Source: a virus. Taken from it: a stretch of DNA of 35,749 nucleotides. Made by a program: the position numbers and the translations under genes. This document shows positions 975 through 35,749 of this stretch, in pieces. Numbering within the stretch: position 1 is the first letter of the stretch; every line of letters starts with the position of its first letter. A model generated the notes under the pieces. The model was given only the letters and a program-made list of their open reading frames with translations, was not told the origin of the DNA and searched no databases. The stretch covers positions 1 through 35,749 of IMG/VR virus record IMGVR_UViG_3300044628_000292. The stretch is one strand, 5' to 3'.

Positions 975-2498
975 ATGCCAGTACCTAATACATTTGCAAA
1001 TGCAACGGCAACGATACCGTTATCGCAACTGGATGCTAACTTTGCAACCACGATTACGCTTGGCAATACGGCAATACAGCTAGGCAACACGGTTAGCACA
1101 TTAAACAACATGACGTTGGCGAATGTCACTGTCACCAGTGGCAATGTGACGCTAACTAACGTGACGGTTACGACTGCTAATGTCACGACAGGCAATATAA
1201 CTAATTTAATAAGTGGTAATGTTGCCATAACAGGTGGCAGTGTTAACGGCACGACGTTAGGTGCTTCTAATGCTGCCTCTGCCAACGTGACTACTTTGAC
1301 TACAAGTTCAACTGTCACAGTCAATGGCGGCACTGCAAATACGGTTCAGTATTTGGACTCTAGCAAAGTCATGAGCGGCTCTGCCAACTTGACCTTCGAT
1401 GGCACAACGCTTGGCGCGGCGCAGCTTACGGTCAACAGCAACAACATCTCAGCGGTCAATAGCTTGGGTTTCCGTAACCGCATCATTAACGGTGATATGC
1501 GGATCGACCAGAGGAATAACGGGGCGAGTGTTACTCCTGCCGTAGATGGTTATACACTTGATAGATGGAGTGTTCTTATTTCACAAGCTTCTAAATTTAG
1601 TGTAGAACAAACAATTTCAGGAGTAGTAGCTCCTGTTGGGTTTACCGATTATCTTGGATGCACTTCTTTATCAGCATATTCAGTTTTAACTGCTGATTAT
1701 TTTACTGTGCGGCAGGCTATTGAAGGTTTTAACATCGCAGATTTAGGCTGGGGAACAGCAAATGCTAAGACAGTTACTTTGTCATTTTGGGTGCGTAGTT
1801 CATTAACAGGTACTTTTGGGGGGTCTTTTCAAAATAACACTTCAGCCCGCAGTTATCCATATACTTACACAATTTCTACAGCAAACACTTGGGAGCAAAA
1901 ATCAGTAACTATTGCTGGTGATACTAGCGGAACATGGCAAACAGGGAATTTAACAGGGATTTTTATTTATTTTGGTCTTGGTGTTGGGTCAACATTTAGC
2001 GGAACAGCGGGAGCATGGGCTGGCAGTAATTTCCTATCAGCTACAGGCGCAACCTCTGTAGTCGGCACAAACGGAGCCACCTTCTACATCACCGGCGTAC
2101 AACTAGAAGCTGGCTCAGTAGCAACACCGTTCGAGCGCAGAGATTATGGGCGTGAGTTGGCGATGTGCCAGCGTTATTACTGTAGATTTCAAGGACAAGC
2201 AGGAGCGCCAACCCCAATTTGTGCAGCGTTTTTGGCTTCAACGACTTCCGCGCAGGGTTCTATTTCTTTTCCAGTAACAATGAGAGCCAATCCCACTCAA
2301 TCGGGGTCTGCTGCTGCTGATGTTGAGGTAACTTGGTCAGCGGGAACATCTGCCACATCTGCGTTGACTTTAGATTTGGTGTCCCCAAACAACGCTCTTT
2401 TGAGAATTACTACGTCTGGACTGACCACAGGACAAGGTGCTTACTATCGCGTGGCAAGTGGTGCAACAAAATTTCTTGATTTTTCTGCGGAGTTGTAA
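975..2498 (+). CDS. Tail fibre / receptor-binding protein
   Basis: 507 residues. The N-terminal part (about 30-110) is a degenerate repeat of Asn-Val-Thr units (NVTVTSGNVTLTNV and similar), as in fibre shafts. The middle (about 170-385) reads as a carbohydrate-binding-like beta domain (RNRIINGDMRIDQRN, then VTLSFWVRSS). It is followed by GVQLEAGSVATPFERRDYG and ELAMCQRYY, a signature common near the C-terminal part of phage fibre proteins. It should bind the host surface at the tail tip. A GAGG ribosome site lies 6 bases before ATG. Bases about 1550-2050 look more AT-rich than the flanks, suggesting a swapped domain. Confidence 0.8.
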   Translation: MPVPNTFANATATIPLSQLDANFATTITLGNTAIQLGNTVSTLNNMTLANVTVTSGNVTLTNVTVTTANVTTGNITNLISGNVAITGGSVNGTTLGASNAASANVTTLTTSSTVTVNGGTANTVQYLDSSKVMSGSANLTFDGTTLGAAQLTVNSNNISAVNSLGFRNRIINGDMRIDQRNNGASVTPAVDGYTLDRWSVLISQASKFSVEQTISGVVAPVGFTDYLGCTSLSAYSVLTADYFTVRQAIEGFNIADLGWGTANAKTVTLSFWVRSSLTGTFGGSFQNNTSARSYPYTYTISTANTWEQKSVTIAGDTSGTWQTGNLTGIFIYFGLGVGSTFSGTAGAWAGSNFLSATGATSVVGTNGATFYITGVQLEAGSVATPFERRDYGRELAMCQRYYCRFQGQAGAPTPICAAFLASTTSAQGSISFPVTMRANPTQSGSAAADVEVTWSAGTSATSALTLDLVSPNNALLRITTSGLTTGQGAYYRVASGATKFLDFSAEL

Positions 2499-2500
2499 TC

Positions 2501-2683
2501 ATGCAATACAAGATTCAAAACGGCCTTGATGGTACGCCCTGCTCGGTGGCTATTGTCGGGAAGTTGATCAGCATCCCCTTCGACCCAGCCAACACAGACT
2601 ATCAAGCCTTTTTAACTTGGTGCGCCGAGGGCAACGAACCATTGCCAGCAGATGAAGGAGAACAAACCGATGGAGGAACATGA
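2501..2683 (+). CDS. Small protein downstream of fibre, possible fibre-assembly-type protein
   Basis: 60 residues, ATG after GGAG-TTGTAATC. The stretch FDPANTDYQAFLTWCAEG followed by an acidic Pro-rich tail resembles short proteins commonly encoded next to tail fibres (fibre-assembly or XkdW-like types). Its stop overlaps the next start. It has no membrane segment or catalytic motif. Function is inferred from position only. Confidence 0.6.
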   Translation: MQYKIQNGLDGTPCSVAIVGKLISIPFDPANTDYQAFLTWCAEGNEPLPADEGEQTDGGT

Positions 2684-3015
2684 TGGCTGTTAATTCACCT
2701 TTTACTCCGTCCGGTAACACGGTAGCGTTTGTTGCTGCTACAACAGCACCAACAGCGGTTCAAGCCGTGTCTTCAACTTTGGGTGGAAATCAATACAGAG
2801 TTATTAACGCTGGTTCTGTGACAGCGTTTTTAGGCTTTGGTGCAAGCGCAGCGGCAGCAAATGCAGCAGCAGCGATTGTGACTTCTTCCGGTCAAGCGTT
2901 GCCATTGTTGGCTGGAACGGATGAAATTATTACTTTTACCCCAAACGCTTATTTCACAGCAATTACTAGCAGCAGCAATGCAGCAATCTACATAACCCCA
3001 GGTGACGGGAGTTAA
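2683..3015 (+). CDS. Small beta-rich virion-associated protein (paralogue of 13876-14223)
   Basis: 110 residues, starting at the second of two adjacent ATGs (2680 and 2683) because that gives a 6-base gap from GGAGG. It is rich in Ala, Thr and Ser and predicted to be mostly beta. It ends AIYITPGDGS, which matches the end of the 115-aa product at 13876-14223 (TVYVTPGEGL). Both also share a pattern of a small hydrophobic core around an Asn/Gly turn. It lies between two fibre genes, so a role as an accessory fibre or head decoration protein is plausible but unproven. Confidence 0.6.
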   Translation: MAVNSPFTPSGNTVAFVAATTAPTAVQAVSSTLGGNQYRVINAGSVTAFLGFGASAAAANAAAAIVTSSGQALPLLAGTDEIITFTPNAYFTAITSSSNAAIYITPGDGS

Positions 3016-3018
3016 CAA

Positions 3019-3996
3019 ATGTTAAAGACGGTCAGCACTTACGTTAATGTTATCGGCGCTCTTGTTTACAGGGGAACGTGGGATGCTGCGACAAATAATC
3101 CAACCCTTACTTCTAGCGTTGGAAATAAAGGTGATTACTATTATGTAAATGTTGCTGGTTCTACTAATCTGAATGGAATTACTGATTGGCAAATTGGTGA
3201 TCTTGCTATTTTTAATGGCGCTGTTTGGCAAAAAGTTGATAACACGGATGCCGTTCAATCAGTAAACGGTCAGACAGGTGCGGTTGTGCTTACCGCTGCC
3301 AATGTTGGGGCTACACCTAACACCACGTTTGTTTTAGCAGGCACGGGTATTTCCGGTGGTGGGCAGTTGACCGGCAATGTCACCATTAACTTGGCTAACA
3401 CGGCGGTGACAGCCGGTACTTACGGCACTGCCAGCCAAGTATCTCAAGTTACGGTTGACGCTCAAGGTAGGATTACCAGCGCAGCCAATGTAGCCATTGC
3501 TATTGCGAACTCTGCGGTGTCTGGCCTTGGCACAATGGCAACTCAGAATGCCAACAATGTGGCAATTACAGGTGGCAATGTTACCGCTACCAATGTCACT
3601 ACAACGAATTCCTTTATCGGCTCGGCATTTCAGGCTTCAGGTAGCGCAGGCGGTACACTAAAAAGTTCAAGCGGTGCAGCCCAAATGCAGTGGGGATCAG
3701 GCGGTGGTAACAACCTATCGCTTGAAGTTGCTACAAATATCAATCCTGCTAACGCTGCGGTAAGTATCAGCCCGACAGGTTCAGGTACGGTATCAATCAA
3801 TCCTGCTGGTGGTGGATCTGCCAACCTGACAAACATTACTGCGGCTAATGTAACCGTTACTGCCAACTTGTTTGCTAACCTAACAACTACCAGTACAGCG
3901 GCTATGCCTGATCCTAGTTTGCCGCTAGCACCAGAAGGTTACATAACGGTCTATGTCAACGGAAGCGCCAAGAAAATCCCTTATTACGGAGTCTGA
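3019..3996 (+). CDS. Second tail fibre-like protein
   Basis: 325 residues after a GGGAG site. The N-terminal 75 residues contain YRGTWDAATNNPTLTS and GDYYYVNVAGS, the beta module found in many phage fibres that carries a WQIGDLAIFNG motif. Then comes VQSVNGQTGAVVLTAANVGA, a typical fibre linker. Next are Gly/Asn/Thr-rich repeats (GTGISGGGQLTGNVTINLAN, ITGGNVTATNVTT) like those in the 975-2498 fibre. The short C-terminal end (LPLAPEGYITVYVNGSAKKI) probably makes the tip. It probably pairs with the first fibre in the tail. The exact role, fibre versus collar, cannot be told. Confidence 0.72.
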   Translation: MLKTVSTYVNVIGALVYRGTWDAATNNPTLTSSVGNKGDYYYVNVAGSTNLNGITDWQIGDLAIFNGAVWQKVDNTDAVQSVNGQTGAVVLTAANVGATPNTTFVLAGTGISGGGQLTGNVTINLANTAVTAGTYGTASQVSQVTVDAQGRITSAANVAIAIANSAVSGLGTMATQNANNVAITGGNVTATNVTTTNSFIGSAFQASGSAGGTLKSSSGAAQMQWGSGGGNNLSLEVATNINPANAAVSISPTGSGTVSINPAGGGSANLTNITAANVTVTANLFANLTTTSTAAMPDPSLPLAPEGYITVYVNGSAKKIPYYGV

Positions 3997-4564: not shown

Positions 4565-4854
4565 TTTCCGATGAAGACTTCTTGCGGCTGTTTAATACCG
4601 CAATGGCACTGGCTAAACCAATGGGAAAGCCAACCGTAAACGCCGAACAGATAGATTCTGGCTTTGAAACCATTGACGTTGATAGCCTAGATTTATTGAT
4701 AATTGCCATGTACTTGTGTGATGCCTTTGCCGTTCCAGAAGAGATTGGCAAGGAAATGAGGCCAGCAAACTTGCGGGAAATGAAAGACTTTCTGGTGGCT
4801 AATGCGACTGTAGAAGGTTTTGATGTCAATTCAGCCATAGCGGTGATGCAATGA
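4561..4854 (+). CDS. Acyl carrier protein
   Basis: 97 residues. The segment IDVDSLDLLIIAMYLCDAFA (about 38-57) matches the ACP signature: Asp-Ser-Leu-Asp with Ser42 as the predicted 4'-phosphopantetheine site, at the start of an acidic recognition helix. Then come VPEEIGKEM and a final helix LREMKDFLVAN, as in AcpP helix IV. The protein is acidic and slightly longer than AcpP (78 aa), with an extra C-terminal tail. It would carry acyl chains as thioesters after modification by a host phosphopantetheinyl transferase; none is seen in this window. Its stop overlaps the ketosynthase start by 4 bp, which strongly suggests they work together. Confidence 0.85.
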   Translation: MISDEDFLRLFNTAMALAKPMGKPTVNAEQIDSGFETIDVDSLDLLIIAMYLCDAFAVPEEIGKEMRPANLREMKDFLVANATVEGFDVNSAIAVMQ

Positions 4855-5975
4855 GCCTATTTCTAACCTACGGGCATACCGTATCCAACCCGCAAACCAC
4901 GCTGATGGAAGACATTTTGCACCCACAGCGTGTGCATTTCATACCGGAAAGCTACCAAGGCACTAAACAAGGCTTTAAGTATGCTCCGCATAATCTTGCC
5001 AACATGGTGATGGCACCAGCAACGCTGGAATGGCTGCGGGAAAACCCGGCACTAGGCAAGACTGCTTTTATTCTAGCAGCAGGCAATGCCCACTTTGCTG
5101 GCATCAACCCGCGCAAAAACCAAACGAACACGCAGTTGCATTATGAGTACAAGTTTTTGCCCTTCACGCTTACGCAAGTCATGGCTGGCAGGCTGGCAAA
5201 TATGATCTGCCAACCCGATTACATTGCTACTGACTCCACCGCCTGCGCATCCAGCCTCAAAGTCATGATGGACTGCTTGATGCTGGAAGCCTTTGGCTTT
5301 ACCCGTTTCATCATCCTGTCTGTGGAAGATGCCGTATCTAATTCCGTTTTGCAATTCTTTGGTGATTCAGGTGCCTGCCTAACCTTGGCTGAAGAAACTA
5401 AGAAAGACATTAAGCCTAGCGCCTTTGACAGTACAAATGGCGGCTTTTACGTTGGTCAAGGCGCTGCCTTTGCTGTTTTGCAAACAGAAGGTGAGGTCAA
5501 CCACTATGGTCTGACCCCAAAAGCTAGGCTTGTCGGTGCCTACCATGCGGCAGAAAAGTGGAACAATGCCATAGGTCAAGCACCTGATGGCACGGGCTAT
5601 GTAGATGCTATTGAAGGTGCCATGCGGTATGGAGAAGTGTTCCCAATTGACATCAAAATTGTGAAGACACACGGCACTGGCACAGAGTCTAACAACGTGT
5701 CTGAAAAGTTAGCATTGATGAACACTTTGGATAGCTTTGTAGCAACGTCATTTAAACCAAAAATAGGTCACACAATGGGCGCTTCGGGCTTGCTAGAAAC
5801 GCTACTTTTGCTTGACAATCTGGTTTATGGTGTTGTACCTGCTATTCCTAACCGGACAGAAAAAGACGATATTTTCCTGTCTGAAGACTGCGAGACTCCT
5901 GATGGGCTGATCCTTAGTCTTGCCGCTGGAATGGGTAATGTGTATTCCGCAGCAATCTTTGACCCAGTGAGGTGA
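4851..5975 (+). CDS. Beta-ketoacyl-ACP synthase (FabF/KAS-like)
   Basis: 374 residues with a complete condensing-enzyme active site. The nucleophile is Cys132 in DSTACASSLK, the first His is His274 in KTHGTGT, and the second is His307 in GHTMGASGLLE. Lys302 (His minus 5) and Glu316 (His plus 9) sit where FabF has its conserved Lys and Glu. KAS enzymes join a malonyl unit to an acyl thioester on ACP with loss of carbon dioxide. It is shorter than typical FabF (about 410 aa). The C-terminal GFGGTN-type loop is replaced by AAGMGNVY, so chain-length preference may differ. Coupled to the ACP gene by ATGA; no reductase or dehydratase lies nearby, so host enzymes would complete a cycle. Confidence 0.88.
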   Translation: MSLFLTYGHTVSNPQTTLMEDILHPQRVHFIPESYQGTKQGFKYAPHNLANMVMAPATLEWLRENPALGKTAFILAAGNAHFAGINPRKNQTNTQLHYEYKFLPFTLTQVMAGRLANMICQPDYIATDSTACASSLKVMMDCLMLEAFGFTRFIILSVEDAVSNSVLQFFGDSGACLTLAEETKKDIKPSAFDSTNGGFYVGQGAAFAVLQTEGEVNHYGLTPKARLVGAYHAAEKWNNAIGQAPDGTGYVDAIEGAMRYGEVFPIDIKIVKTHGTGTESNNVSEKLALMNTLDSFVATSFKPKIGHTMGASGLLETLLLLDNLVYGVVPAIPNRTEKDDIFLSEDCETPDGLILSLAAGMGNVYSAAIFDPVR

Positions 5976-5977
5976 TT

Positions 5978-6430
5978 ATGGTTCAGATGGTGGACAGTCG
6001 AGAACAAGAACTCAGTCCAGAAGATATTGTAGCCATTGCTGCAATGAATACTGATGCAGGCGTTGATCGCTCAAAAGCAATCGCTATGATTAACGAAGAA
6101 CTAAAGATGGATGACACCTTGTTTATCCGTCAAGGCAATACTCTTTTTATCATTCATAAGGCAAAACCGGGCGTCGGTTGGTTTCGCGCATTGAATGCTG
6201 ACGTTGCTGCCAACTATCTTGAGAACAGCGTAGAGTTTATCCGCGCTTGTTACAAGATGGGTTTCGACACAATGGCATCCACTTTCCGTGATCCTGCCAT
6301 TCTGCAAATCTTCCGTTATATCTCAAAGAACCCACCCAATCCTGAGATGGGTTACAACTTGCGCCAAACGTCTGACGGTCAGTTTATGGGAAGTATTAAA
6401 ACTGGGCCAGCAAGAGGAGGTGTGCAATGA
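5978..6430 (+). CDS. Hypothetical protein, weakly GNAT-like; T7 gp13-like position
   Basis: 150 residues starting at ATG 5978, since GAGG lies 5 bases upstream; a GTG at 5972 is the alternative. The layout (acidic helical N-terminus, DTLFIRQGNTLFIIHKAKPG beta hairpin, two helices around SVEFIRACYKMGFD, then a C-terminal strand) recalls small GNAT acetyltransferases and the T7 gp13 group. T7 gp13 also precedes the internal virion proteins. No clear acetyl-CoA loop motif is visible. It overlaps the next gene by ATGA and follows the ketosynthase by 2 bases, so it could use acyl groups from the ACP, but that is speculation. Confidence 0.6.
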   Translation: MVQMVDSREQELSPEDIVAIAAMNTDAGVDRSKAIAMINEELKMDDTLFIRQGNTLFIIHKAKPGVGWFRALNADVAANYLENSVEFIRACYKMGFDTMASTFRDPAILQIFRYISKNPPNPEMGYNLRQTSDGQFMGSIKTGPARGGVQ

Positions 6431-7857
6431 GTGGCATTCCTATTGTTGGTGATGTTATTGACTTTGCGGGCGATATTGTCGAAGCTGTTGGCGATTTTGT
6501 GGAAGACGTTGTTGAAGTAGTCGGTGACGTTATTGAATACGTTGTTGAAAACCCTGAAGTTTTAATTATTGCCGTTGTTGCGCCACAGCTTTTACCTAAA
6601 ATTGGCATAACGGGCATTGCGGTTCAACCTGTAACTGCTGGTTTGATTTCAGCGTCGCAAGGCGGTGACTTAGAAGACATTGGTAAAGCCGCGCTTGGTA
6701 GCTTTGTCGGTCAAGGCGTTGGCATTCCTGTGGCAAAAGGTGTTGGCAATGTTGTTGGCACTGGAAATGCAGCCCAAGTTGCTTTAGCTAATTTTGCTGG
6801 TGGTGCTGCTGGTGGTGCTGCTGGCGCTGTGGTAACAGGTCAAGATGTTGGCGAAGCCGCTGTTATTAGCGGATTAGGTTCTGCTGGCGCGTCTTTGGCG
6901 CGTTCAGGTGCGGTTTCATTGGGGCAACAACCACAAAGTTTAGCTGGCGACGTTGCCGCTGACATTGGTGAGGCTGTAGGTCGTACCGCTGCCGGTGGAG
7001 ACATAAGACAAGAATTAGCTGGTGCTGCACTAAGTTCTTTAAGCAGAGAAGGCCAAATAGCACTAGATGAATTAAGAAGCAGACCAGAAACCGCTGCAAC
7101 GAAACAAGCGATTGCTGCATTCTCTCAGCCTCGCAGCCCCGGTGTTGGTACACAACTTGGTGAGGCACTAGCGCAAAATAGAGAGGCAGGGTTTGCTTCA
7201 ACTGAACCAGAGCAAATTGGTGATTTAACCATAACAAAAACTGGTCAATATGCCAAAGACGGTGTATTGCCGACAGTTATTGTTACTCCAAACAAACCCG
7301 GAGACGGTGAAGGATTTGGTGGTGATGTTCGCACTGGTCGAACCATTCCGAGTTCGTTGCCATCCGGTAGAGCTAAAGCTGCTGGCACAGCAGGTGGTGT
7401 TACAACCACTGCAACTGGTGGCATGGGTGCTGGTGAAGGCGCTGGTGGCAGAGCGCCAGAAGAAATGACGGGCGCTGAGTTGCTCGAAAGTGCAGCGGAA
7501 GGCGAAGAAACAAGAGAGTTGCCAGAGGTCGTGGTTGAAGGTGAAGATGAACTTATTGTTGAGCCAATCGACTTTACTAAGTTTACTGACGAAGAGTTGA
7601 TTGAGTATCTGAATCAAGAGTTTCCATTGACTGAGCCTGAACCCGTTGAACCTGATTTTCAGCCATTAGATGTTAGACCAGCTAGAGGAAGCACTCGAAG
7701 AGCAGCACCAAGTTCAATCAGTCCTCGCGTCGTAGGCACTAGCCCAACAGCAGCAATCGTGGGTGAAAAAGAACCTATTTTTGGTGGTGAGGAAGATGCA
7801 CAGCAAAGCGTATGGAACACCCGTTCCTTGCGTTTAAGAAAGGCATTGGGTGGCTAA
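6427..7857 (+). CDS. Internal virion / ejection-type protein, Gly/Ala-rich
   Basis: 476 residues. The first 45 residues are a long acidic amphipathic run of Val/Asp/Glu (VIDFAGDIVEAVGDFVEDVV). A hydrophobic stretch (about 46-70) follows, then long Gly/Ala-rich helices (about 75-170), a pattern typical of phage internal proteins that enter or cross membranes. The C-terminal half is disordered, rich in Pro, Glu and Gly. It heads a set of four large genes (to 12704) lying after the fibres, the position of ejection proteins in podoviruses. Its start overlaps the previous stop. No enzymatic domain is recognised. Confidence 0.6.
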   Translation: MSGIPIVGDVIDFAGDIVEAVGDFVEDVVEVVGDVIEYVVENPEVLIIAVVAPQLLPKIGITGIAVQPVTAGLISASQGGDLEDIGKAALGSFVGQGVGIPVAKGVGNVVGTGNAAQVALANFAGGAAGGAAGAVVTGQDVGEAAVISGLGSAGASLARSGAVSLGQQPQSLAGDVAADIGEAVGRTAAGGDIRQELAGAALSSLSREGQIALDELRSRPETAATKQAIAAFSQPRSPGVGTQLGEALAQNREAGFASTEPEQIGDLTITKTGQYAKDGVLPTVIVTPNKPGDGEGFGGDVRTGRTIPSSLPSGRAKAAGTAGGVTTTATGGMGAGEGAGGRAPEEMTGAELLESAAEGEETRELPEVVVEGEDELIVEPIDFTKFTDEELIEYLNQEFPLTEPEPVEPDFQPLDVRPARGSTRRAAPSSISPRVVGTSPTAAIVGEKEPIFGGEEDAQQSVWNTRSLRLRKALGG

Positions 7858-7858
7858 T

Positions 7859-8962
7859 ATGAAAATACTTGAGATGATGGTTGGTAGTCGTGGCATGGGT
7901 GACGCTAAAGCGATGGCTGAGATGCTACGTCGCATGGGGCGTCGTGGTGACACCATGCTTGCTCACATTACGCCAGAAGAAGCTGAGATGCTGATGGAGG
8001 CTGGTGGTAGCGGCACCATTAACCCGGTTACTGGCTTGCCTGAGTTTGCTCCTCGCCGTTTAGATACCTACTATGGCTTTGAGCCGGACGCACAAACCAC
8101 TCGTGTTCCAGAGCCAGAGATTGAGCGTTTCCAGCCTGCGCCAGAACGAACTGTTAGCAGTGACATTAGACAAGAACGCCTCAATCCAGAGGTGGACTTT
8201 ACTGCTGGCTTAACAAGAAGGTATCAACAAGAGCCTCGTTTGCCTGATTATGAAAGCGTTGACTTTGCTCGTATGCCAGAGCGTCAAACCTTTCCAACAG
8301 ATTTTCAAACACAGCGTTTGCCACAACTGGCAAACATTGATGTAATGAACCGAGGCAATGTTCCTGAATTCAGACCTTTGGAAGACATTGAGGCACCAAC
8401 TAGACAGCCGGGGTTTGCAGAACGCGCTGAAAAAGGATTGCAAGAACTGCAAGACATACTAGATCGTTACCCAAATCTGACACGCGCTGGTACTGCGGGT
8501 GCTAGCGTTTTAGCGCAAGCCTTGATGTTCAATCAGGCTAATCAGGCTATGCGTCGTGACATTGAAGCTACTCGCGCTGCTGCTCAACCTTTCCGTCAAG
8601 CGCAATCTGAAGCAATGGGTCGCGCTACTGGCGAAGGTTTAACAGCAGAGCAACAGCAAGAGTTAGAGATTCAACAGGCCCGTGCGCGTGAGCAATTAGG
8701 TCAGCGTGGTACGCCAACAGGCAGTGCAGCCGCAGGTATTCTGGCAGCACAGCAGCGTCGTGCGCGTAGCCTAGCCCGTCAAGAGAGTTTTGGTGAAGCC
8801 TTGCGCCTTGCTAACATTGCAGATCAGTATGACCGTCGCGCACTAGAGATGGAATTGCAGCGTGATCAGCAGTTGGCACAGTTGTTTGCTGGCATTCTAG
8901 GCCGTGAAGTACAGCAGGCACAGCGTACTCAAGCGCCTGCGCCAGCCGCTACCGGGAGGTAA
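7859..8962 (+). CDS. Internal virion / structural protein, coiled-coil
   Basis: 367 residues from ATG 7859 (a GTG at 7850 would add three residues). It begins MKILEMMVGSRGMGDAKAMA, then has a Pro/Arg/Glu-rich middle that looks unstructured. An Arg/Gln/Ala-rich helical C-terminal half (about 200-355, including QQELEIQQARAREQLGQRG and ARSLARQESFGEALRLAN) is probably a long coiled coil. It has no catalytic motif. It is the second of four adjacent large late genes, so an ejected or tail-interior protein is the likely role. Confidence 0.6.
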   Translation: MKILEMMVGSRGMGDAKAMAEMLRRMGRRGDTMLAHITPEEAEMLMEAGGSGTINPVTGLPEFAPRRLDTYYGFEPDAQTTRVPEPEIERFQPAPERTVSSDIRQERLNPEVDFTAGLTRRYQQEPRLPDYESVDFARMPERQTFPTDFQTQRLPQLANIDVMNRGNVPEFRPLEDIEAPTRQPGFAERAEKGLQELQDILDRYPNLTRAGTAGASVLAQALMFNQANQAMRRDIEATRAAAQPFRQAQSEAMGRATGEGLTAEQQQELEIQQARAREQLGQRGTPTGSAAAGILAAQQRRARSLARQESFGEALRLANIADQYDRRALEMELQRDQQLAQLFAGILGREVQQAQRTQAPAPAATGR

Positions 8963-17558: not shown

Positions 17559-17918
17559 CTAACTACCTTCAGGCGAAGGTTCATCCTGTGGCTGATGGGG
17601 GGTTAATTCGTTACCTAACAGAGTCAGCAAGTCGGAAAGTCGGAGCATGGCTAAAGACTTATTGCCATCCTCGCGCATGATCACAAGGGGTATTTGACCT
17701 ATCTCGCAAGCCTTCTCTGCTTGCTCCATAAAATCATACACTGCAATCTTGCGTCTGCGTTTGCATTCAATGAGATATTTGCCAAGGATTAAGTCACCTT
17801 CATCGGACACCTGATACTGCTTCAGGTTCCGACGAATGCGTATGCCTAGCTGATCAAATATTGCATTGGCGACTTCACGTTCATAGCTTGCGCCACGCTG
17901 CCTGTTAAGTTTGCTCAT
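17559..17918 (-). CDS. PDDEXK nuclease, Holliday-junction-resolvase-like
   Basis: 119 residues from the ATG at 17918. The motif order RGASYEREV (Glu13), DEGDLIL (Asp42) and LIECKRRRK (Glu51-x-Lys53) is the PDDEXK core as in archaeal Hjc-type resolvases and phage relatives. These cut branched DNA made in recombination or before packaging. An upstream in-frame extension (to 18098) is unlikely to be coding because it overlaps the cysteine-rich peptide gene. It fits the recombination set in the same leftward operon. Confidence 0.75.
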   Translation of the reverse strand: MSKLNRQRGASYEREVANAIFDQLGIRIRRNLKQYQVSDEGDLILGKYLIECKRRRKIAVYDFMEQAEKACEIGQIPLVIMREDGNKSLAMLRLSDLLTLLGNELTPHQPQDEPSPEGS

Positions 17919-18000
17919 GGTGGGGGTGGGGTACTCGCTGCGTCTGTGTGCGCTCCACCGGGTAGTCCCAGCAGCACAGCATCCGCTTTCCCCCAAAAAG

Positions 18001-18147
18001 TTAGTAGCAATTTGTGTTGCAGCTATTGCCGTAGCAGCAGGTTGTACAAGTAACACACCTACCTTGATCGCAGTAGGTATTGTAAGTGCAGGTTGCATAA
18101 ACCAGTGGTGCGGTAATCGCTAACCATAACGCAAATAGGTATCTCAT
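18001..18147 (-). CDS. Secreted cysteine-rich small peptide
   Basis: 48 codons plus stop, ATG at 18147 with GGAGG 5 bases upstream. Residues 1-18 (MRYLFALWLAITAPLVYA) look like a Sec signal peptide with a VYA cleavage site. The remaining 30 residues hold eight cysteines (positions 20, 26, 31, 34, 37, 38, 43 and 47), including CTTCCYGNSC. A periplasmic disulfide-bonded or metal-binding microprotein is likely; a lipoprotein is less so, as the lipobox is poor. It lies between the SSB-like and nuclease genes. No family recognised. Confidence 0.68.
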   Translation of the reverse strand: MRYLFALWLAITAPLVYATCTYNTYCDQGRCVTCTTCCYGNSCNTNCY

Positions 18148-18157
18148 GTAACCTCCA

Positions 18158-18439
18158 TTAGAAAGGAATATCGCCATCATCTTTCCGCTTACTAGGGAAA
18201 GGGTTTACATTGCCGGGGCCGGTACTTTCAGGCGGCACCCAAGTATCTTCTTTGATCGAAATTAGCGCACCCCCTTTCGTGTCCTTAGTCCATGCTGCCA
18301 GCTTGATTGTGTCACCCGGAGCGTAGTGTTCAGATACCTTGAGTTCACCACGCCAGTCAGGGCTACTAGGCGACTTCTTGTTACGGTTGCTCAGTAGTAC
18401 CCCTGTACCCATCTTGCGTTCAATGTCTGGTCGATCCAT
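18158..18439 (-). CDS. SSB-like small protein with acidic tip
   Basis: 93 residues, GGAG before ATG. The last residues DDGDIPF match the acidic C-terminal tip of bacterial SSB (DDDIPF), which binds replication and repair proteins. The body (GTGVLLSNRNKK, WRGELKVSEHY, DTIKLAAWTKDTKGGALISI) has short strands compatible with a reduced OB fold, but the size is well below SSB (about 178 aa). It overlaps the wHTH gene and lies close to the annealing protein and exonuclease genes, so ssDNA binding or recruitment during phage recombination is the likely job. Confidence 0.62.
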   Translation of the reverse strand: MDRPDIERKMGTGVLLSNRNKKSPSSPDWRGELKVSEHYAPGDTIKLAAWTKDTKGGALISIKEDTWVPPESTGPGNVNPFPSKRKDDGDIPF

Positions 18440-18683
18440 GTTGCTTCTCCTTAACTAATGAATAACGTGCTATCTCTTTCCTGCCAACACGCACCGTTTG
18501 CGTCACGATGGTGTGTCCATCTTTCCTAAGTTCTTCAATGCGTGCCGCCAGCCGTAGCACGCCGTACAGTCTTAGGCTATCAAGGGCTGTAATGCCATCG
18601 CCTTGCTGCAAATGATCTAGGATCATGGCTGATTGCCCCTTGCCGCTGGCTGGCTTCAACCCTTTTTTATTTGCTGATCGCAA
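18420..18683 (-). CDS. Winged helix-turn-helix protein
   Basis: 87 residues if started at TTG 18683, where AGGAGG sits only one base upstream. ATG 18626, with AGGGG 9 bases upstream, would give 68 residues. The core AMILDHLQQGDGITALDSLR, LYGVLRLAARIEELRKDGH, then IVTQTVRVGRKEIARY is a short winged-helix fold common in phages. It overlaps both neighbours, so it belongs to the recombination operon. Its regulatory target is unknown. Confidence 0.7.
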   Translation of the reverse strand: MRSANKKGLKPASGKGQSAMILDHLQQGDGITALDSLRLYGVLRLAARIEELRKDGHTIVTQTVRVGRKEIARYSLVKEKQHGSTRH

Positions 18684-19501
18684 TCCTCCTTCGCCCTTTT
18701 CACGCCCTTAGTCCATACCTCAAATAGCACTGGCTTCTCAGCTTCAATCATGCCAAGCACAAAGTCATTAGCGCCTTCCAGTGCTGTGATCTTTGCCAGC
18801 TTCTCGGCAGCGTTTAGCTTCCCGCTTGCCATGATGCTTGTGACCATATCCAAGTAGCCGTTGACAAACTCATCATCGTTGGCATGGTAGGCATAGGCTT
18901 CGCTCTTTCCCGGCACCATAAAAGCAACGCCTGTGGTTTGCTTTGGTGGTGGTGCAGGTACTTCGATGGGTGCAACTGCTTGGGGTACGATCAGAGGCTC
19001 TTTACGCGCTTCCGGGATGGTTTCAACTTCAGTCTCATCAAGCATTCCGAGTCCACAATGTGCAAGAACCGACCTGCGTATTGCTTTCGTAGTCGCCTTA
19101 AGGATGGCATTAGCCAATCTCTCGCCGACAAGGGTTGAAACATCCACTGCGCCTTGATTTTCTGAAACTCTACCGTCAGCGCCCGTGCATCGGACGGAGA
19201 CAATGTAAATTCCATCCACACGTTCCCGATGCGTAATCTGAGTGGAAAGTTTGTGGAGCGCACAAAGTTGTTGAGTAGCTCCTGCGTTCGCGTAGAGGAT
19301 TTGTTTACCATTGAGTGTGAGTAGGTCAAAGGGTTTAGCGGCTGGATCAAGACCAACTTGGCGGCAGCGGTACAAGTAATACTCTTTCTTCTGATCCTCG
19401 TTCAGTCCAGACAAGTCACCACGCAACACAATGGATGATTGGATAGCAGGGTCAAGTACGGCAATTGCCGACTCCCCTGCCATGTTGACTACGTTACTCA
19501 T
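18656..19501 (-). CDS. Probable single-strand annealing recombinase
   Basis: 281 residues, GAGAGGATTAACC before ATG. The segment LNEDQKKEYYLYRCRQVGLD (about 33-52), then LTLNGKQILYANAGATQQL and KATTKAIRRSVLAHCGLGML, recalls a phage group found beside YqaJ exonucleases and thought to act like RecT/Rad52-type annealing proteins. Assignment is by this pattern and by the exonuclease three genes upstream. A Pro-rich linker (about 170-195) separates a helical C-terminal domain. It would pair ssDNA ends during recombination-driven replication. Confidence 0.62.
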   Translation of the reverse strand: MSNVVNMAGESAIAVLDPAIQSSIVLRGDLSGLNEDQKKEYYLYRCRQVGLDPAAKPFDLLTLNGKQILYANAGATQQLCALHKLSTQITHRERVDGIYIVSVRCTGADGRVSENQGAVDVSTLVGERLANAILKATTKAIRRSVLAHCGLGMLDETEVETIPEARKEPLIVPQAVAPIEVPAPPPKQTTGVAFMVPGKSEAYAYHANDDEFVNGYLDMVTSIMASGKLNAAEKLAKITALEGANDFVLGMIEAEKPVLFEVWTKGVKRAKEDCDQQIKKG

Positions 19502-19954: not shown

Positions 19955-20848
19955 TCACTTCAAAAGGAAACGGCGGGAACCGGGTTGTTCAACGACAAAT
20001 TTGTCATACATCTCTGGCATGGCATTGCGGAACAAGTCTTTAGAAAAAGACTTAGTCGATTTGCTGGCCTTCCAAGTAGCTAGGATTCGCCCGTCATAGG
20101 TTGCCAGTTGGCTGGCTTCCATCATGTAGCCTTGCACTTTGGCAGCTAGGCCATCTTCCTGCGCTTCTAATACTTTGCGCTGTTCTTTGACGATCTTCAG
20201 CATCTCGCAAATGTTTTCCAATTCCTGATTGGCTAACAGGCTGTTGCCATTGTCTTCCTTGTACACAATCTTGGCAGCATCACCCATCGTTTCAGGGTCA
20301 AAGTTCCTAGCCTTGATGCGCCCCCAAAACTGTGCCATCTCTCTGGCGTGTAAATCCCACTGCTCCTCTGAGAAATGCTGTGGATAGTGGCAGATTTCCT
20401 GACCGCCAAAGCACACCACTAAGACTACGTTAGGGATGCGGTGGACTAAGGATTCATGCAAGCATTGAACACGGTAGCCTGTGTCAACATCAGTTGTACC
20501 ATCGTCGCCATACTTCTTCCGCTGGTGGATACCTAGATTCTTGACCTCATAGAGTGTCTGCCCATCCTCTGAAATGTAATCAAAGTGTGAGGCAAGAAAG
20601 GTATGTTGCGGATGATAGAGAGCGTAGTCAGCATCTTTGAAATTGATGCGTTGTCTGCGTGCAAACTCGCGCATGATGGGTTCCTGCATTACCAAACCCA
20701 TTTGCACAGCTTCTACGTTGGATAAGTCATCTAACGGTTTAACGCCAATCTTCTCAGCGTAAACCTCACCGCTTCTACCTTCAACGAAACGGCGTGCATC
20801 GTTAGACCACAATGCGTTATTGCGCACTTCGGGTGAAAAGTCACTCAT
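19955..20848 (-). CDS. YqaJ-type exonuclease
   Basis: 297 residues. The PDDEXK-type core is visible as GLVMQEPIMREFARR (Glu56), ASHFDYI (Asp90), LYEVKN (Glu101-x-Lys103) and the Gln128 motif GYRVQCLHES, in the order of lambda-exonuclease/YqaJ family nucleases. The C-terminal third is a long helix. It should process dsDNA ends to expose single strands, working with the annealing protein encoded downstream. Start follows GGGGCTAAAC, the leader used repeatedly in this genome. Confidence 0.85.
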   Translation of the reverse strand: MSDFSPEVRNNALWSNDARRFVEGRSGEVYAEKIGVKPLDDLSNVEAVQMGLVMQEPIMREFARRQRINFKDADYALYHPQHTFLASHFDYISEDGQTLYEVKNLGIHQRKKYGDDGTTDVDTGYRVQCLHESLVHRIPNVVLVVCFGGQEICHYPQHFSEEQWDLHAREMAQFWGRIKARNFDPETMGDAAKIVYKEDNGNSLLANQELENICEMLKIVKEQRKVLEAQEDGLAAKVQGYMMEASQLATYDGRILATWKASKSTKSFSKDLFRNAMPEMYDKFVVEQPGSRRFLLK

Positions 20849-21680: not shown

Positions 21681-21866
21681 TTAGGCGTCGAGTTCTACCA
21701 ATTGGAAACGGCGTTCACGAAGGCGAAGAACAGAAGCGGACAGGTGATGAACAGACGCTTTAGCACGGTCTAAAGCAGCTTGAGCAGCAGCTTCCTGCTT
21801 GCGAATACGGTCTATAAGGTCTGTGTCTTGACGAGGATCGAATTGATCCTGATAGGTGTAAATCAT
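21681..21866 (-). CDS. Small coiled-coil protein, first gene downstream of early promoter
   Basis: 61 residues from ATG 21866 with GGAGG 5 bases upstream. Beginning MIYTYQDQFDPRQDTDLIDR, the rest is a charged Ala-rich helix likely to be a coiled coil. It is the first gene after the promoter at 21915-21943. Unknown function. Confidence 0.58.
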   Translation of the reverse strand: MIYTYQDQFDPRQDTDLIDRIRKQEAAAQAALDRAKASVHHLSASVLRLRERRFQLVELDA

Positions 21867-21914
21867 TGGAACCTCCCTGATTAGGAAACGGATAATGTGC
21901 ATCAGCACACGCGC

Positions 21915-21943
21915 ACAATAGTTCACAGAATACACAAAGTCAA
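21915..21943 (-). promoter_or_regulatory. Sigma-70-type early promoter (leftward)
   Basis: On the minus strand TTGACT (21943-21938) is separated by exactly 17 bases from TATTGT (21920-21915). It reads towards the gene at 21866 and so into the recombination operon. An inverted repeat TGTGC-ATCA-GCACA (21896-21909) lies just downstream and may be an operator. Confidence 0.65.
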
Positions 21944-21981
21944 CAACTATTTTGAGAGATAGAGTGAAAGGCATTCTGCCC

Positions 21982-22002
21982 TGTGGATAAGTCTGTGGAT
22001 AA
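21982..22002. promoter_or_regulatory. Two DnaA boxes
   Basis: TGTGGATAA occurs at 21982-21990 and 21994-22002, each the exact complement of the consensus TTATCCACA, spaced 12 bp start to start and in the same orientation. They sit next to the iteron array. Confidence 0.75.
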
Positions 22003-22047
22003 GTAGTCTGTTTCTTTTTGGCAAGTGGAACACCTATATAAATATAT

Positions 22048-22270
22048 CTATACGTTTACTATAGTCTAAGTAAACGTATAGCTATACGTTTCCTATATAT
22101 ATACGGTTACTATAGCTATACGGTAACTATAGCTATAGGGTAAACCGTCATATGGGTATATGAGGGTCTATCGTTCTAACATCTATCTCTCAAAACTTAT
22201 AGGTATAGTCGTTTACTAAGACTATACGTTTACTTTCCTATACGGTTTCTAAATCTATACGGTTCCTATA
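22048..22270. repeat. Iteron-like array, CTATACG(G/T)TT(A/C)CTATA
   Basis: Copies begin at 22048, 22082, 22100, 22116, 22222, 22238 and 22255 on the plus strand, and one lies inverted at 22069-22081. The first and inverted copies form a perfect 13-bp inverted repeat (22048-22060 with 22069-22081). Steps of 16-17 bp recur. The variants differ mainly at G/T and A/C positions. Initiator binding or regulator binding are both possible. Confidence 0.8.
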
Positions 22271-22467
22271 CATATAGGTAGGCGCGTGTCAATTTGGAAA
22301 GATGATTTCCGATTTTTTTGGCAGATTCAAATGTCAAAGGAATGAACCTGCATTTGTTGCCAAACAAGCTAGGGTTGAGTTTTGCATAGGGGTTTTTGAA
22401 AAGCGGATTGACTGGCAAGTGTAGGAATGCCCCTAAAACGCATTAAAACGCGCTACAAGGCTAGGAA

Positions 22468-22495
22468 ATAAAAAAGCCGGTACTGAGTACCGGCT
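22468..22495 (-). terminator. Rho-independent terminator for leftward transcripts
   Basis: AGCCGGTAC (22475-22483) pairs with GTACCGGCT (22487-22495) around a 3-base loop. On the minus strand a T-run follows. It would stop transcripts from 24438 before they enter the origin region. Confidence 0.85.
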
Positions 22496-22518
22496 AAGGG
22501 GAAAACGTCTTAAAACGC

Positions 22519-23381: not shown

Positions 23382-24272
23382 CTATGCTGCAATTGCTTCG
23401 GTGACTTGCTCAGTCTCGTTCACTTGCTCACCCGTCAGATAATCCAAAGCATTTTGTGCTTTTGCTGCCGCTGAGAGAATGAATTTTTTATCATTGCGCA
23501 AAGCCTGTAGCCAGCTTTCAATGTAGCCAGCGTGGCGTAAATCCCCATCAATGCCACATTTTGCGCAAAGCATTGCAGCGCCTAATTCTGCAACTAATTC
23601 CTCAAAAGCATAATTTTCACTGCCAAACCTAGCTGGAGTGATGCGCTTTAATCGCTTTTCGTGTCCGCTTGCGTGTACTGATTCGTGTAGCAAAGTGGCA
23701 TAGTAATTTTCACGAGAATCAAAAGCTGCCTGTGGTGGCATCACAATGGCGTCAGTGCTAGGCCTGTAATAAGCGCTGTCACCAGCGTGTGTTAGCCCGC
23801 CTGTTAGTTGCAAGCGAGTAACTATTTGATCAGCTTCGTTGCAAGCATCCCATTCAACTGCCGGTATCTCAGGCATTGGCGGTAATTCAATGCCAGAACA
23901 TTGTTCAATATTGAAAACGTAATAATGTTTGATAAAAGCATACGCACTGGTGACAGATTCACCCTTGTCGCCTATGGTTTCCCGCCGGTGAACATTCCAA
24001 TATACAACCGGAGTACCCTTTTGATCGGCTAACACGCTACCGCCAAGCATTTGCGCTTGCTTGAAAGTAACGTAGTAAGGAATAGCAAAGGGTTGCATTG
24101 ATAGCCAAAAGTGATTGATGCCCCTGTAAACCGTACCGCTGGCAGGATTGAATGGCATCCCTTGCCCTGGTTGCTGCTTTAGGTAACGCCAAGGCTTTAC
24201 CCACGGCGTAGCCCCTTTTTCTAGCTCGGAAATGATTCTGTCGGTAATTTGTTGTGCAATATCGATTTTCAT
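23382..24272 (-). CDS. ArdC-like antirestriction protein (ssDNA-binding domain plus zincin)
   Basis: 296 residues from ATG 24272. The N-terminal domain (about 1-130; IISELEKGATPWVKPWRY, ASGTVYRGINHFWLS, PVVYWNVHRRE) matches the ArdC/DUF1738 ssDNA-binding fold. The C-terminal domain has HESVHASGHEKR with His196-Glu197 and His200, the HExxH zinc site, and ENYAFEELVAELGAAM provides a likely third ligand. Plasmid ArdC protects incoming DNA from restriction. In this phage it lies near the start of the first leftward unit, consistent with early action. Leader AAGGGGCTAAAC precedes it. Confidence 0.82.
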   Translation of the reverse strand: MKIDIAQQITDRIISELEKGATPWVKPWRYLKQQPGQGMPFNPASGTVYRGINHFWLSMQPFAIPYYVTFKQAQMLGGSVLADQKGTPVVYWNVHRRETIGDKGESVTSAYAFIKHYYVFNIEQCSGIELPPMPEIPAVEWDACNEADQIVTRLQLTGGLTHAGDSAYYRPSTDAIVMPPQAAFDSRENYYATLLHESVHASGHEKRLKRITPARFGSENYAFEELVAELGAAMLCAKCGIDGDLRHAGYIESWLQALRNDKKFILSAAAKAQNALDYLTGEQVNETEQVTEAIAA

Positions 24273-24282
24273 GTTTAGCCCC

Positions 24283-24438
24283 TTATTTGATTCGTTCGTA
24301 AACCGCAACGCAGCTAATAACGTCATCATGGTCTAAGGCTTGCTCTTGAGCATGATTCGCATCTTCCGCTTCACAATGGAAACTCCAACGACTCATTTCC
24401 TCGTTATTTTCTTCAACAATGACAATATATTCATTCAT
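24283..24438 (-). CDS. Small acidic protein
   Basis: 51 residues from ATG 24438, preceded by AGGGGCTAAAC. Begins MNEYIVIVEENNEEMSRW and has two cysteines; beta-alpha pattern. It is the first gene after the leftward promoter at 24487-24515, 10 bases before the ArdC-like gene. No family recognised. Confidence 0.6.
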   Translation of the reverse strand: MNEYIVIVEENNEEMSRWSFHCEAEDANHAQEQALDHDDVISCVAVYERIK

Positions 24439-24464
24439 GTTTAGCCCCTGATAAGTTTAGGAAT

Positions 24465-24479
24465 ATGCACTGAGTGCAT
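24465..24479. promoter_or_regulatory. Candidate operator, ATGCACT-G-AGTGCAT
   Basis: A perfect 7-bp dyad around one base lies just downstream of the leftward -10 box, covering the expected start of transcription. A related half (TGAGTGTATG) is repeated 24 bp away at 24495-24504. Confidence 0.55.
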
Positions 24480-24486
24480 GGGTGTA

Positions 24487-24515
24487 AATATATATGAGTG
24501 TATGCATTAACTCAA
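24487..24515 (-). promoter_or_regulatory. Sigma-70-type leftward promoter
   Basis: On the minus strand TTGAGT (24515-24510) and TATATT (24492-24487) are 17 bases apart. The first gene start is 50 bases on (24438). Confidence 0.65.
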
Positions 24516-24868
24516 GGGGCATCTATATATATATAGGTATATATTTTTCTATTGGCTTGTATATAGGGATATAGGTAATCTATTAGGAATAGTTGCTCGG
24601 GTGATAATTGGTATATTGTCAATCTTCGCGCTCTTGTATATTTATTAACATGGGGCAATAGGCATTGTTTTCCATGCAATATTGTCTATTGGTCAATTGA
24701 CATAGGGGCAACGGTGCCATTTATGCAATTGACGTTATGACAAGGGCATAGGTCTGACCTATTGGGAACGGGCAGGCGATAGGGATTGGACTGTTATGTT
24801 TGTGGCAATGCGATGGGTCTTGACCCTCCGTGGTTGCGCGCCCTATTCCCCTCCCCGCCCCAAGGAAA

Positions 24869-25151: not shown

Positions 25152-25385
25152 ATGTTGAATGCAAAGAAGGCACACGCCTTGTTGGATTATTTGAAGGATA
25201 GGTTTGGGTTAAGGAATGACCGGGAGTTGGCGCGGGAGTTAGGTGTGCAGTCGGGTTATGTCAGCCGGGTGCGGCATGGGCATTTGCCGGTCAGTGCAAG
25301 CTTGATGTTGGGAATCCACGATGTGTTTGGACTGGAGATTCATGAGATCAAGGATTTGGCGCAAAAGGCAGATGGACAATCCTGA
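25152..25385 (+). CDS. XRE/Cro-like helix-turn-helix regulator
   Basis: 77 residues, GGAGGGACT before ATG. RNDRELARELGVQSGYVSRV with the turn and recognition helix SGYVSRVRHG (about 32-42) is a lambda-Cro/XRE-type helix-turn-helix. It may bind the dyad at 24897-24914 in front of its own operon, but the target is inferred. Its stop overlaps the next gene. Confidence 0.75.
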   Translation: MLNAKKAHALLDYLKDRFGLRNDRELARELGVQSGYVSRVRHGHLPVSASLMLGIHDVFGLEIHEIKDLAQKADGQS

Positions 25386-34837: not shown

Positions 34838-35749
34838 ATGGCTGCGGCAGAGCAGAAAAAAAATTACGCCGTAGTCAAAGACTTCAAAGGTCTTAACACC
34901 AAGAATAACCGCACGGTAATTGGTGATGGCGAGTTTAGCTGGCTAGAAAACATCCAGCCCATTGGCTACGGCAATCTCAAGATTACACCCGGCAATCAGC
35001 AGCTTGCGAATGTTGCATTTACTGCAAATGTTTCGTTTCAAGGCTCTGTCAACATTAGCAACAACGAGTATGTACTGGCGTTCCAAGACGATGGATCGGC
35101 ACAGTATGTCAACATTACGACAGGCGCTCAAGGAAACATTGCTCCGGCAAATACCTTTTCTAATGCCGATGTAATGATTACGCAGTGGCGCAATGAACGT
35201 GCGCTAATTATTGATCCGGTTAAAGGTTACAAGACTTGGGATGGCACCAATTTACTCTCCATTGGCAGCATCAATACGATTACCATCAATAATGGTGGCA
35301 GTGGCTATCTGACATCCAATACTGCTGTTACCTTTGGCGCACCCAATCAAGCGAATGGCGTACAGGCAACGGGTACGGTGGTGGTGGTTGCCAATGCGGT
35401 ATCGGAAGTGATTGTGACTGAGGCTGGCACAGGTTATACCACCGCGCCAACAGTCACTATTACTGGCGCAGGCACAAATGCCAATGTGACTTGCACGATT
35501 CTGAATCAGAGTGGATCTGATATTGCCACTTTCTCAGGCCGCACTTGGATTGCGCAGGATCGTACCGTGTATTACACGGCAACCGATACCTACAATGATT
35601 TTATTAACTTAACGGCTGGCTTCATTACGTTAAGTGATTCGACGTTGCGTACCGAAATTACCCGCATTCTTTCTGCCAACAACTTTTTGTATGTATTTGG
35701 CGAAGACAGTATCAACGTCTTTTCGGATGTGCGGGTAGATTCTACGCTT
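34838..35749 (+). CDS. P22 gp10-like tail (DNA stabilisation) protein, 5' part, continues at base 1
   Basis: ATG at 34838 follows the gp4-like gene after one base and stays open to the window edge (304 codons). It opens with a charged segment and the phrase KDFKGLNTKNN, typical of the start of P22 gp10-type packaged-DNA stabilisation proteins. Residues about 148-222 form a Gly/Thr/Val-rich stretch with GGSGY and GTGYTTAPTVTITG motifs, a beta repeat seen in many phage and surface proteins. That probable insert may explain why the full product (about 576 aa) is longer than P22 gp10 (472 aa). The last 155 bases repeat the start of the window. Confidence 0.72.
   Translation, partial: MAAAEQKKNYAVVKDFKGLNTKNNRTVIGDGEFSWLENIQPIGYGNLKITPGNQQLANVAFTANVSFQGSVNISNNEYVLAFQDDGSAQYVNITTGAQGNIAPANTFSNADVMITQWRNERALIIDPVKGYKTWDGTNLLSIGSINTITINNGGSGYLTSNTAVTFGAPNQANGVQATGTVVVVANAVSEVIVTEAGTGYTTAPTVTITGAGTNANVTCTILNQSGSDIATFSGRTWIAQDRTVYYTATDTYNDFINLTAGFITLSDSTLRTEITRILSANNFLYVFGEDSINVFSDVRVDSTL
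35595..35749. repeat. Terminal direct repeat, right copy (circular overlap)
   Basis: Second copy of the 155-bp end repeat; the reading frame of the gp10-like gene continues through it into base 1. The unit genome is thus 35,594 bp. It lies inside a gene, which argues against a physical terminal repeat of the T7 kind and for an assembly overlap. Confidence 0.9.

What the first reader, a model, noticed from the sequence alone, without database searches (positions are those of the whole stretch)
21982..22270. Candidate replication origin: DnaA boxes and CTATACG iterons
Two exact DnaA boxes lie 46 bp from a cluster of eight or more related 13-17 bp repeats with a CTATACG(G/T)TT(A/C)CT core, spaced 16-17 bp in places. 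One pair forms a perfect 13-bp inverted repeat. The DNA is strongly AT-rich. This matches an iteron-type origin, which is not a usual feature of P22-like podoviruses.
Basis: partly seen in the sequence, partly recalled or inferred. Interest (0 to 1): 0.72.

Follow-up and report, generated by a model that had tools for sequence, protein, structure and literature searches.

The report
Host-DnaA-type replication origin in a phage
A noncoding stretch of this metagenomic phage genome looks like a bacterial or plasmid-style start site for DNA replication, with docking sites for the host's own starter protein DnaA beside a fast-evolving repeat array, and the phage encodes no recognisable starter protein or helicase, so it probably borrows the host's.

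Summary
Two exact DnaA boxes (21982-21990, 21994-22002) lie 45 bp from eight copies (0-1 mismatch) of CTATACGNTTNCT in the least stable 250 bp of the genome. The repeats far exceed chance.

Exact DnaA boxes occur 159 times in 765 kb (5.8 expected), 157 on one strand, mostly as 11-12-bp tandems upstream of the same exonuclease/annealase operon. The repeat array changes sequence, orientation and copy number between lineages in about 17-18-bp units. A sigma-70-like promoter (TTGACA-17-TAnnGT) follows in most lineages. The architecture persists to about 54% exonuclease identity and, with DnaA boxes and an AT-rich stretch only, to 43%.

The genome closes into a circle and encodes no detectable Rep, helicase, primase or polymerase. 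One relative carries an O-like initiator, primase and DnaB helicase instead of this region (single contig, possibly chimeric).

Best reading: a host-DnaA-dependent origin (about 0.7). The iteron binder is unknown, so membership in the iteron-plasmid family fails on its defining Rep gene. The 'P22-like' label is unsupported. Counter-evidence: no GC-skew minimum; one sister lineage lacks the boxes; T5-like phages have DnaA boxes plus repeats in an injection-stop region.

The parts
21982..21990 (-). DnaA box (TTATCCACA), promoter-proximal
   Evidence: exact consensus; conserved in relatives
21994..22002 (-). DnaA box (TTATCCACA), 12 bp from the first
   Evidence: exact consensus; neighbour spacings in relatives are 11, 12, 21 or 22 bp
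22031..22280 (.). least stable 250-bp duplex of the genome, candidate unwinding region that contains the repeat array
   Evidence: nearest-neighbour stability and AT content
22048..22060 (+). iteron CTATACGTTTACT
22069..22081 (-). iteron CTATACGTTTACT, inverted; direct in L044/L049/L225
22082..22094 (+). iteron CTATACGTTTCCT
22099..22111 (+). iteron ATATACGGTTACT (1 mismatch)
22116..22128 (+). iteron CTATACGGTAACT (1 mismatch)
22133..22145 (+). degenerate copy CTATAGGGTAAAC, in the 17-bp register
   Evidence: read; repeat family D1
22222..22234 (+). iteron CTATACGTTTACT
22238..22250 (+). iteron CTATACGGTTTCT
22255..22267 (+). iteron CTATACGGTTCCT
21950..21963 (+). left arm TTTTGAGAGATAGA of a perfect 14-bp inverted repeat, between the promoter and the DnaA boxes
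   Evidence: I7
22182..22195 (+). right arm TCTATCTCTCAAAA, inside the AT-rich region; conserved in the CTATACG lineages
21915..21943 (-). sigma-70-like promoter TTGACT-17-TATTGT firing away from the origin into the recombination operon
   Evidence: TTGAC[AT]-16/18-TAnnnT in most lineages although the spacer to the boxes diverges
22475..22495 (-). intrinsic terminator closing the upstream gene, isolates the region
21681..21974 (-). first gene after the origin; likely real start 21866 (about 61-aa coiled-coil protein), found beside most of these origins
19955..20848 (-). RecE/lambda-type exonuclease
18656..19501 (-). Rad52-fold single-strand annealing protein (not an initiator)
   Evidence: AlphaFold2 model and Foldseek; Pfam Rad52 only E 0.16
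18420..18683 (-). 87-aa winged helix-turn-helix protein (HTH_39), possible but unproven DNA binder
18158..18439 (-). SSB-like protein
   Evidence: weak, E 1.8e-4
17559..18098 (-). PDDEXK / RusA-like nuclease

Best explanation
The region 21915-22290 is the phage's replication origin and works on host machinery. Host DnaA binds the tandem boxes at 21982-22002, which lie on the same face of the helix. With a protein that fills the 17-bp repeat array (identity unknown), and helped by negative supercoils left behind RNA polymerase leaving the adjacent leftward promoter, it opens the very unstable AT-rich array at 22031-22280. The host's helicase loader, DnaB, primase and polymerase III then start theta replication. 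The phage's own exonuclease, Rad52-like annealase, SSB-like protein and nuclease, made from that promoter, take over for recombination-driven concatemer synthesis. Shown: the sequence elements, their conservation and their co-location. Inferred: DnaA binding, strand opening, initiation, and the later switch.
For: (1) In 103 related loci (765 kb) there are 159 exact DnaA boxes against 5.8 expected, 157 on one strand and 146 clustered (the loci are related, so not independent). Of 66 loci with >=1.7 kb upstream of the exonuclease, 49 carry an exact tandem pair; two that do not (L011, L034) are contigs that end at this very region, and L035, L041/L043 and L052 have tandem sets that include 1-mismatch boxes. 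(2) Boxes persist while their surroundings diverge: exonuclease 70-77% identity, 54% (L248) and 43-44% (L222, L236, L238). (3) The array evolves like protein-binding iterons: the unit changes between lineages (17-bp CTATACGGTTACT; 18-bp TATAGGTATAACAAAGGA; 18-bp GGTTATAGGTAT), 34 bp are gained or lost, and one unit is inverted in register. (4) Least stable 250 bp of the genome. (5) The window closes on itself (155-bp end repeat, 153/155), so gene content is close to complete, and no Rep, helicase, primase or polymerase is found by Pfam, PHROGs or NCBIfam on nearly all ORFs nor by six-frame search for DnaB_C and Rep3_N. DnaB_C occurs in 1 of 50 related records, the one (L038) that carries a replication-gene module instead of the boxes. 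(6) L038 (exonuclease 95% identical) has an O-like replication protein, primase finger and DnaB helicase in place of the region, and the phages from which that module comes have no tandem boxes (0 of 30; 7 single boxes in 754 kb, chance level). (7) A conserved promoter points away from the boxes.
Against: No experiment. Cumulative GC skew does not mark the site. The lineage of L111/L115/L118 (one 37-kb record, G015) keeps the operon but has neither tandem boxes nor DnaB, so the boxes are not essential to the family. In L031 the box segment is deleted while the array remains (possibly an assembly effect). L038 is one 12-kb contig and no second contig with that junction was found, so it could be chimeric. 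T5-like phages, which replicate with their own enzymes, carry tandem DnaA boxes and CTATAG-containing repeats in a noncoding stretch.
Confidence: 0.7

Rival explanations
1. The region is a control region for the leftward recombination operon: DnaA, and a phage or host regulator at the repeats and the 14-bp inverted pair, switch the promoter at 21943-21915. Replication starts elsewhere.
For: Conserved promoter next to the boxes; box-to--35 distances of 27, 37-39, 47-48 and 59 bp are about one helical turn apart; an inverted 14-bp pair brackets the array; an HTH regulator gene is present at 25152-25385.
Against: Spacings of 44-45 and 77 bp break the phasing; an array of about 250 very AT-rich bp is long for an operator; it leaves the missing replication genes and the L038 exchange unexplained. 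The two roles are compatible, as in lambda where transcription activates the origin (PMC5043065).
Confidence: 0.15
2. A sub-version of the origin reading: a plasmid-type iteron origin with its own, unrecognised phage initiator (for instance the 87-aa winged-helix protein, the origin-adjacent coiled-coil protein or another ORFan) that binds the repeats; DnaA is only an assistant. Overlaps with the best explanation, which leaves the array binder open.
For: Architecture equals iteron plasmids, which need Rep, DnaA and an AT-rich segment (PMC5043065); the array changes sequence between lineages as if following a binder; the coiled-coil ORF accompanies 46 of 53 loci with tandem boxes.
Against: No Rep-family protein in any of 11 near-complete records; the winged-helix protein also occurs in relatives without the boxes and was not found in G002 or the L082-type records that have them; the coiled-coil ORF is absent from 7 loci that have the boxes.
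Confidence: 0.35
3. A stop signal for two-step DNA injection, as proposed for T5, where a noncoding region with repeats, palindromes and DnaA boxes halts transfer.
For: T5-like phage Gostya9 has two tandem box pairs followed by 15-bp CTATAG-containing repeats; PMC13250531 describes DnaA boxes and repeats in the T5 injection stop signal.
Against: That signal needs a fixed genome end, whereas this genome assembles as a circle and relatives G002 and G003, also with end repeats, break at other positions; no T5 A1/A2-like genes were seen among the annotated ORFs.
Confidence: 0.05
4. A DnaA-titration site or a structured RNA rather than an origin.
For: Tandem boxes could bind DnaA in bulk; both strands fold better than shuffles (z -4.5 and -6.3).
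Against: Only 2-5 boxes per genome, few for titration; the strongest hairpin is not conserved because one iteron is inverted in sister lineages (6-7 of 13 pairs); no Rfam match.
Confidence: 0.04

Closest known systems
Iteron plasmid origins that also need DnaA (P1 oriR, F oriS, RK2 oriV, pSC101)
   Same: Direct repeats of about one and a half helical turns, DnaA boxes, an adjacent or overlapping AT-rich segment (PMC5043065)
   Different: No Rep gene beside the array or recognisable elsewhere in the genome; AT-rich segment and array coincide in the window; the array's sequence is not conserved within the phage group
Phage lambda ori and O/P module
   Same: Iterons plus AT-rich DNA and activation by a neighbouring promoter (PMC5043065, PMC7466680)
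   Different: Not inside an initiator gene; no O or P homologue; exact DnaA boxes instead
Bacterial oriC
   Same: Clustered consensus DnaA boxes beside an unwinding-prone segment, initiator supplied by the host
   Different: In a phage, only two boxes, plus a 17-bp repeat array
T5-like injection stop region
   Same: Tandem DnaA boxes and short repeats in noncoding DNA (PMC13250531)
   Different: T5 has fixed ends and its own replication enzymes; this genome appears circular or permuted

Membership tests
Iteron plasmid (theta) origin | several direct repeats of about 17-22 bp in helical register | tested here: met
   17-bp period, 8 copies
Iteron plasmid (theta) origin | DnaA box(es) next to the repeats | tested here: met
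   two exact boxes, 45 bp away; conserved
Iteron plasmid (theta) origin | AT-rich unwinding region | tested here: met
   least stable 250 bp of the genome; opening itself not tested
Iteron plasmid (theta) origin | cognate Rep initiator (Rep_3/winged-helix type) encoded by the replicon | tested here: not met
   no Rep3_N in 11 records; none among window ORFs. A novel Rep cannot be excluded
Iteron plasmid (theta) origin | autonomous replication and incompatibility | not testable with these tools
   needs cloning
Lambda-type phage origin | iterons inside an O-like initiator gene, helicase loader P beside it | tested here: not met
   array is intergenic; no O/P-like gene in the window, although an O-like gene exists in L038
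Host DnaA-dependent origin (oriC-like) | clustered consensus DnaA boxes under selection | tested here: met
   159 against 5.8 expected, one strand, conserved spacing
Host DnaA-dependent origin (oriC-like) | replication requires DnaA | not testable with these tools
   experiment
T5-type injection stop signal | lies at a fixed distance from a unique genome end | tested here: inconclusive
   circular closure in the window, G002 and G003 with different break points argues against; virion ends not known
   SU10-type portal model and weak phrog matches only

The most novel reading that the evidence does not exclude
A whole group of tailed phages has given up its own initiator, helicase and primase and starts replication like a bacterial chromosome or plasmid, by host DnaA alone at a tandem-box origin. 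The repeat array is recognised by a host factor or an undescribed small phage protein, and the origin is exchangeable with a complete O/primase/DnaB gene module.
Probability: 0.4. Interest if true: 0.75.

Novelty: new variant of a known kind. Interest (0 to 1): 0.6.

Why it matters
Characterised tailed phages usually bring their own initiator (general knowledge). A metagenomic phage group whose only visible replication signal is a DnaA-box origin would tie phage replication to the host's initiation control, would explain why its genomes lack replication genes, and offers a natural set of origins in which DnaA boxes stay constant while iterons turn over. The apparent swap between an origin without genes and a gene-encoded module gives a direct test of what the region does.

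Tried and rejected
GC skew as origin marker: negative. T7-like promoter reading of ATACG...ACTATAG: dropped, because the matches are confined to the array and one other site and no phage RNA polymerase was found. Structured RNA: rejected, hairpin not conserved and no Rfam hit. Annealase 18656-19501 as initiator: rejected, Rad52 fold. The other AT-rich stretch (24404-24653) as origin: no DnaA boxes and no array; it lies between divergent genes, so probably promoters. Strict mutual exclusion of boxes and helicase: holds in the data but is confounded, because the helicase phages are a different group (no matching coat protein) and some relatives have neither. Host identification: failed; the only genome hit is a phage contig in a Balneolaceae MAG, probably not informative. 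No DNA relative in the phage collection; the origin region has none in plasmids, and in phages matches only short stretches around the tandem boxes. Literature searches for phages with a DnaA-box origin and no initiator gave no direct precedent in the library held.

Full report
What is there. The window is a viral metagenome record (IMG/VR class 'linear'), but its first 155 bases recur at its end (153/155), so it closes to a circle of about 35,594 bp and its gene content is close to complete. Relatives G002 and G003 also show end repeats, with break points elsewhere. The finding lies in the 544-bp gap 21975-22518 between two minus-strand genes; the upstream gene is closed by a terminator at 22495-22475.

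Anatomy. From right to left: an AT-rich segment 22031-22280 holding eight copies of CTATACGNTTNCT (17-bp register), two exact DnaA boxes 12 bp apart, the left arm of a perfect 14-bp inverted repeat whose other arm lies within the array, a sigma-70-like promoter at 21943-21915 reading left, then a small coiled-coil ORF and the operon exonuclease / annealase / winged helix / SSB-like / PDDEXK nuclease. The array exceeds chance even against shuffles of its own AT-rich DNA (8 against 0.04), and the segment is the least stable 250 bp of the genome.

Relatives. Scans with the exonuclease gave about 100 related loci. In them exact DnaA boxes number 159 in 765 kb (5.8 expected), 157 on one strand, 146 clustered, neighbours 11, 12, 21 or 22 bp apart. 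Of 66 loci with enough upstream sequence 49 have an exact tandem pair; two of the others are contigs that end at the origin itself (L011, L034), and L035, L041/L043 and L052 keep tandem sets that include one-mismatch boxes. At 70-72% exonuclease identity the origin is compact: 2-4 boxes, a few CTATACGGTTxCT copies, AAATAAATAAAAAAAA, and one further box. A pattern scan found the same layout at 54% (L248) and 43-44% (L222, L236, L238) exonuclease identity, with other repeats.

How the array evolves. Within the CTATACG lineage, 34 bp (two units) are absent in L044 and L225 relative to L049, and the inverted unit of the window is direct in those three. Between lineages the unit changes altogether (period 17, 18 or 19). 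This is the behaviour of protein-binding repeats, not of an RNA hairpin, whose pairing falls to 6-7 of 13 in sister lineages.

What the phage lacks. Pfam, PHROGs and NCBIfam scans of nearly all window ORFs and six-frame searches for DnaB_C and Rep3_N found no initiator, helicase, primase or polymerase. The one conserved mid-sized unknown in the operon, 18656-19501, has a Rad52 fold (AlphaFold2 pLDDT 82; top Foldseek hits RAD52 and Mgm101, with low TM-scores). Rad52-like Sak recombinases are needed for replication of a staphylococcal phage (PMC5499656), which fits a later recombination-dependent phase here, by analogy only.

A natural exchange. L038, whose exonuclease and annealase are 95% identical to the window's, has no DnaA boxes. 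Upstream of its exonuclease it carries an O-like replication protein (phrog_26426, 1.7e-16; phrog_678, 3.4e-14), a primase zinc finger (phrog_6088, 3.3e-15) and a DnaB helicase (DnaB_C, 6.6e-21). DnaB_C was found in this record only, among 50. The helicase module belongs to another phage group without tandem boxes (0 of 30; 7 single boxes in 754 kb, chance level) and without a matching coat protein. So an origin without genes and a gene-encoded module occupy the same place. This rests on one contig and a rescan found no second example.

Mechanism. Established for iteron plasmids: Rep, DnaA and a nucleoid protein together open an AT-rich segment, and in lambda transcription helps (PMC5043065). 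By analogy, here host DnaA at the tandem boxes and an unknown array binder would open 22031-22280, aided by the promoter that fires away from it, present in most lineages as TTGACA-17-TAnnGT. The host replisome would then load. Binding, opening and initiation are inferred.

Limits. No GC-skew minimum. The G015 lineage keeps the operon with neither boxes nor DnaB. In L031 the boxes are deleted. T5-like phages carry tandem boxes followed by CTATAG-containing repeats in what the literature calls an injection stop signal (PMC13250531; that Gostya9's stretch is this signal is my inference). The circular assembly and differing break points argue against that role here but do not exclude it. The comparative counts come from related sequences and are not independent.

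Verdict. Observation confirmed; origin reading likely; iteron-plasmid membership not met for lack of a Rep; P22-like label unsupported. A new variant of a known kind of origin, in an unusual carrier.

Noticed in passing
window 4851-5975 (+): Beta-ketoacyl-synthase-like gene (Ketoacyl-synt_C E 2.7e-13, weak N-terminal domain) within the structural gene run, intact and 69-97% identical in six of seven compared relatives; unusual cargo for a 36-kb phage.
   Followed up: partly
window 21950-21963 and 22182-22195: Perfect 14-bp inverted repeat TTTTGAGAGATAGA / TCTATCTCTCAAAA, 218 bp apart, one arm next to the promoter, the other in the array; the right arm is conserved in the CTATACG lineages. Could be a pair of regulator sites; binder unknown.
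   Followed up: partly
L252 (Gostya9, T5-like) about 1500-1900: Two tandem DnaA-box pairs followed by 15-bp TTATTTCTATAGTTA tandem repeats in a noncoding stretch, strikingly like the window's layout.
   Followed up: partly
L038 (IMGVR_UViG_3300047284_000257) 899-3204 against 5989-8432: Possible replication-module recombinant: O-like/primase/DnaB genes of one phage group joined to the exonuclease/annealase operon of another.
   Followed up: partly
L124 16799-17446 (record G015): A box-less relative encodes a protein that matches the Pol III beta clamp central domain (Pfam E 2.5e-7) though PHROGs calls its family RusA-like.
   Followed up: no
window 23382-24329 (-): ArdC-type antirestriction protein (ArdcN plus MPTase-PolyVal), conserved close to the origin in most relatives.
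   Followed up: no
window 24404-24785: Second very AT-rich intergenic stretch between divergent genes, no DnaA boxes or array.
   Followed up: yes
L097 / G019:C8: A 37.6-kb relative of this phage is a contig in a MAG labelled Balneolaceae (JAGYJQ010000016.1); probably just binned with it, host unproven.
   Followed up: no
window 1-155 and 35595-35749: End repeat of 155 bp with two mismatches; the map closes to about 35,594 bp.
   Followed up: yes
window 25152-25385 (+): Small CI/CII-like helix-turn-helix protein just upstream of the terminase genes.
   Followed up: no
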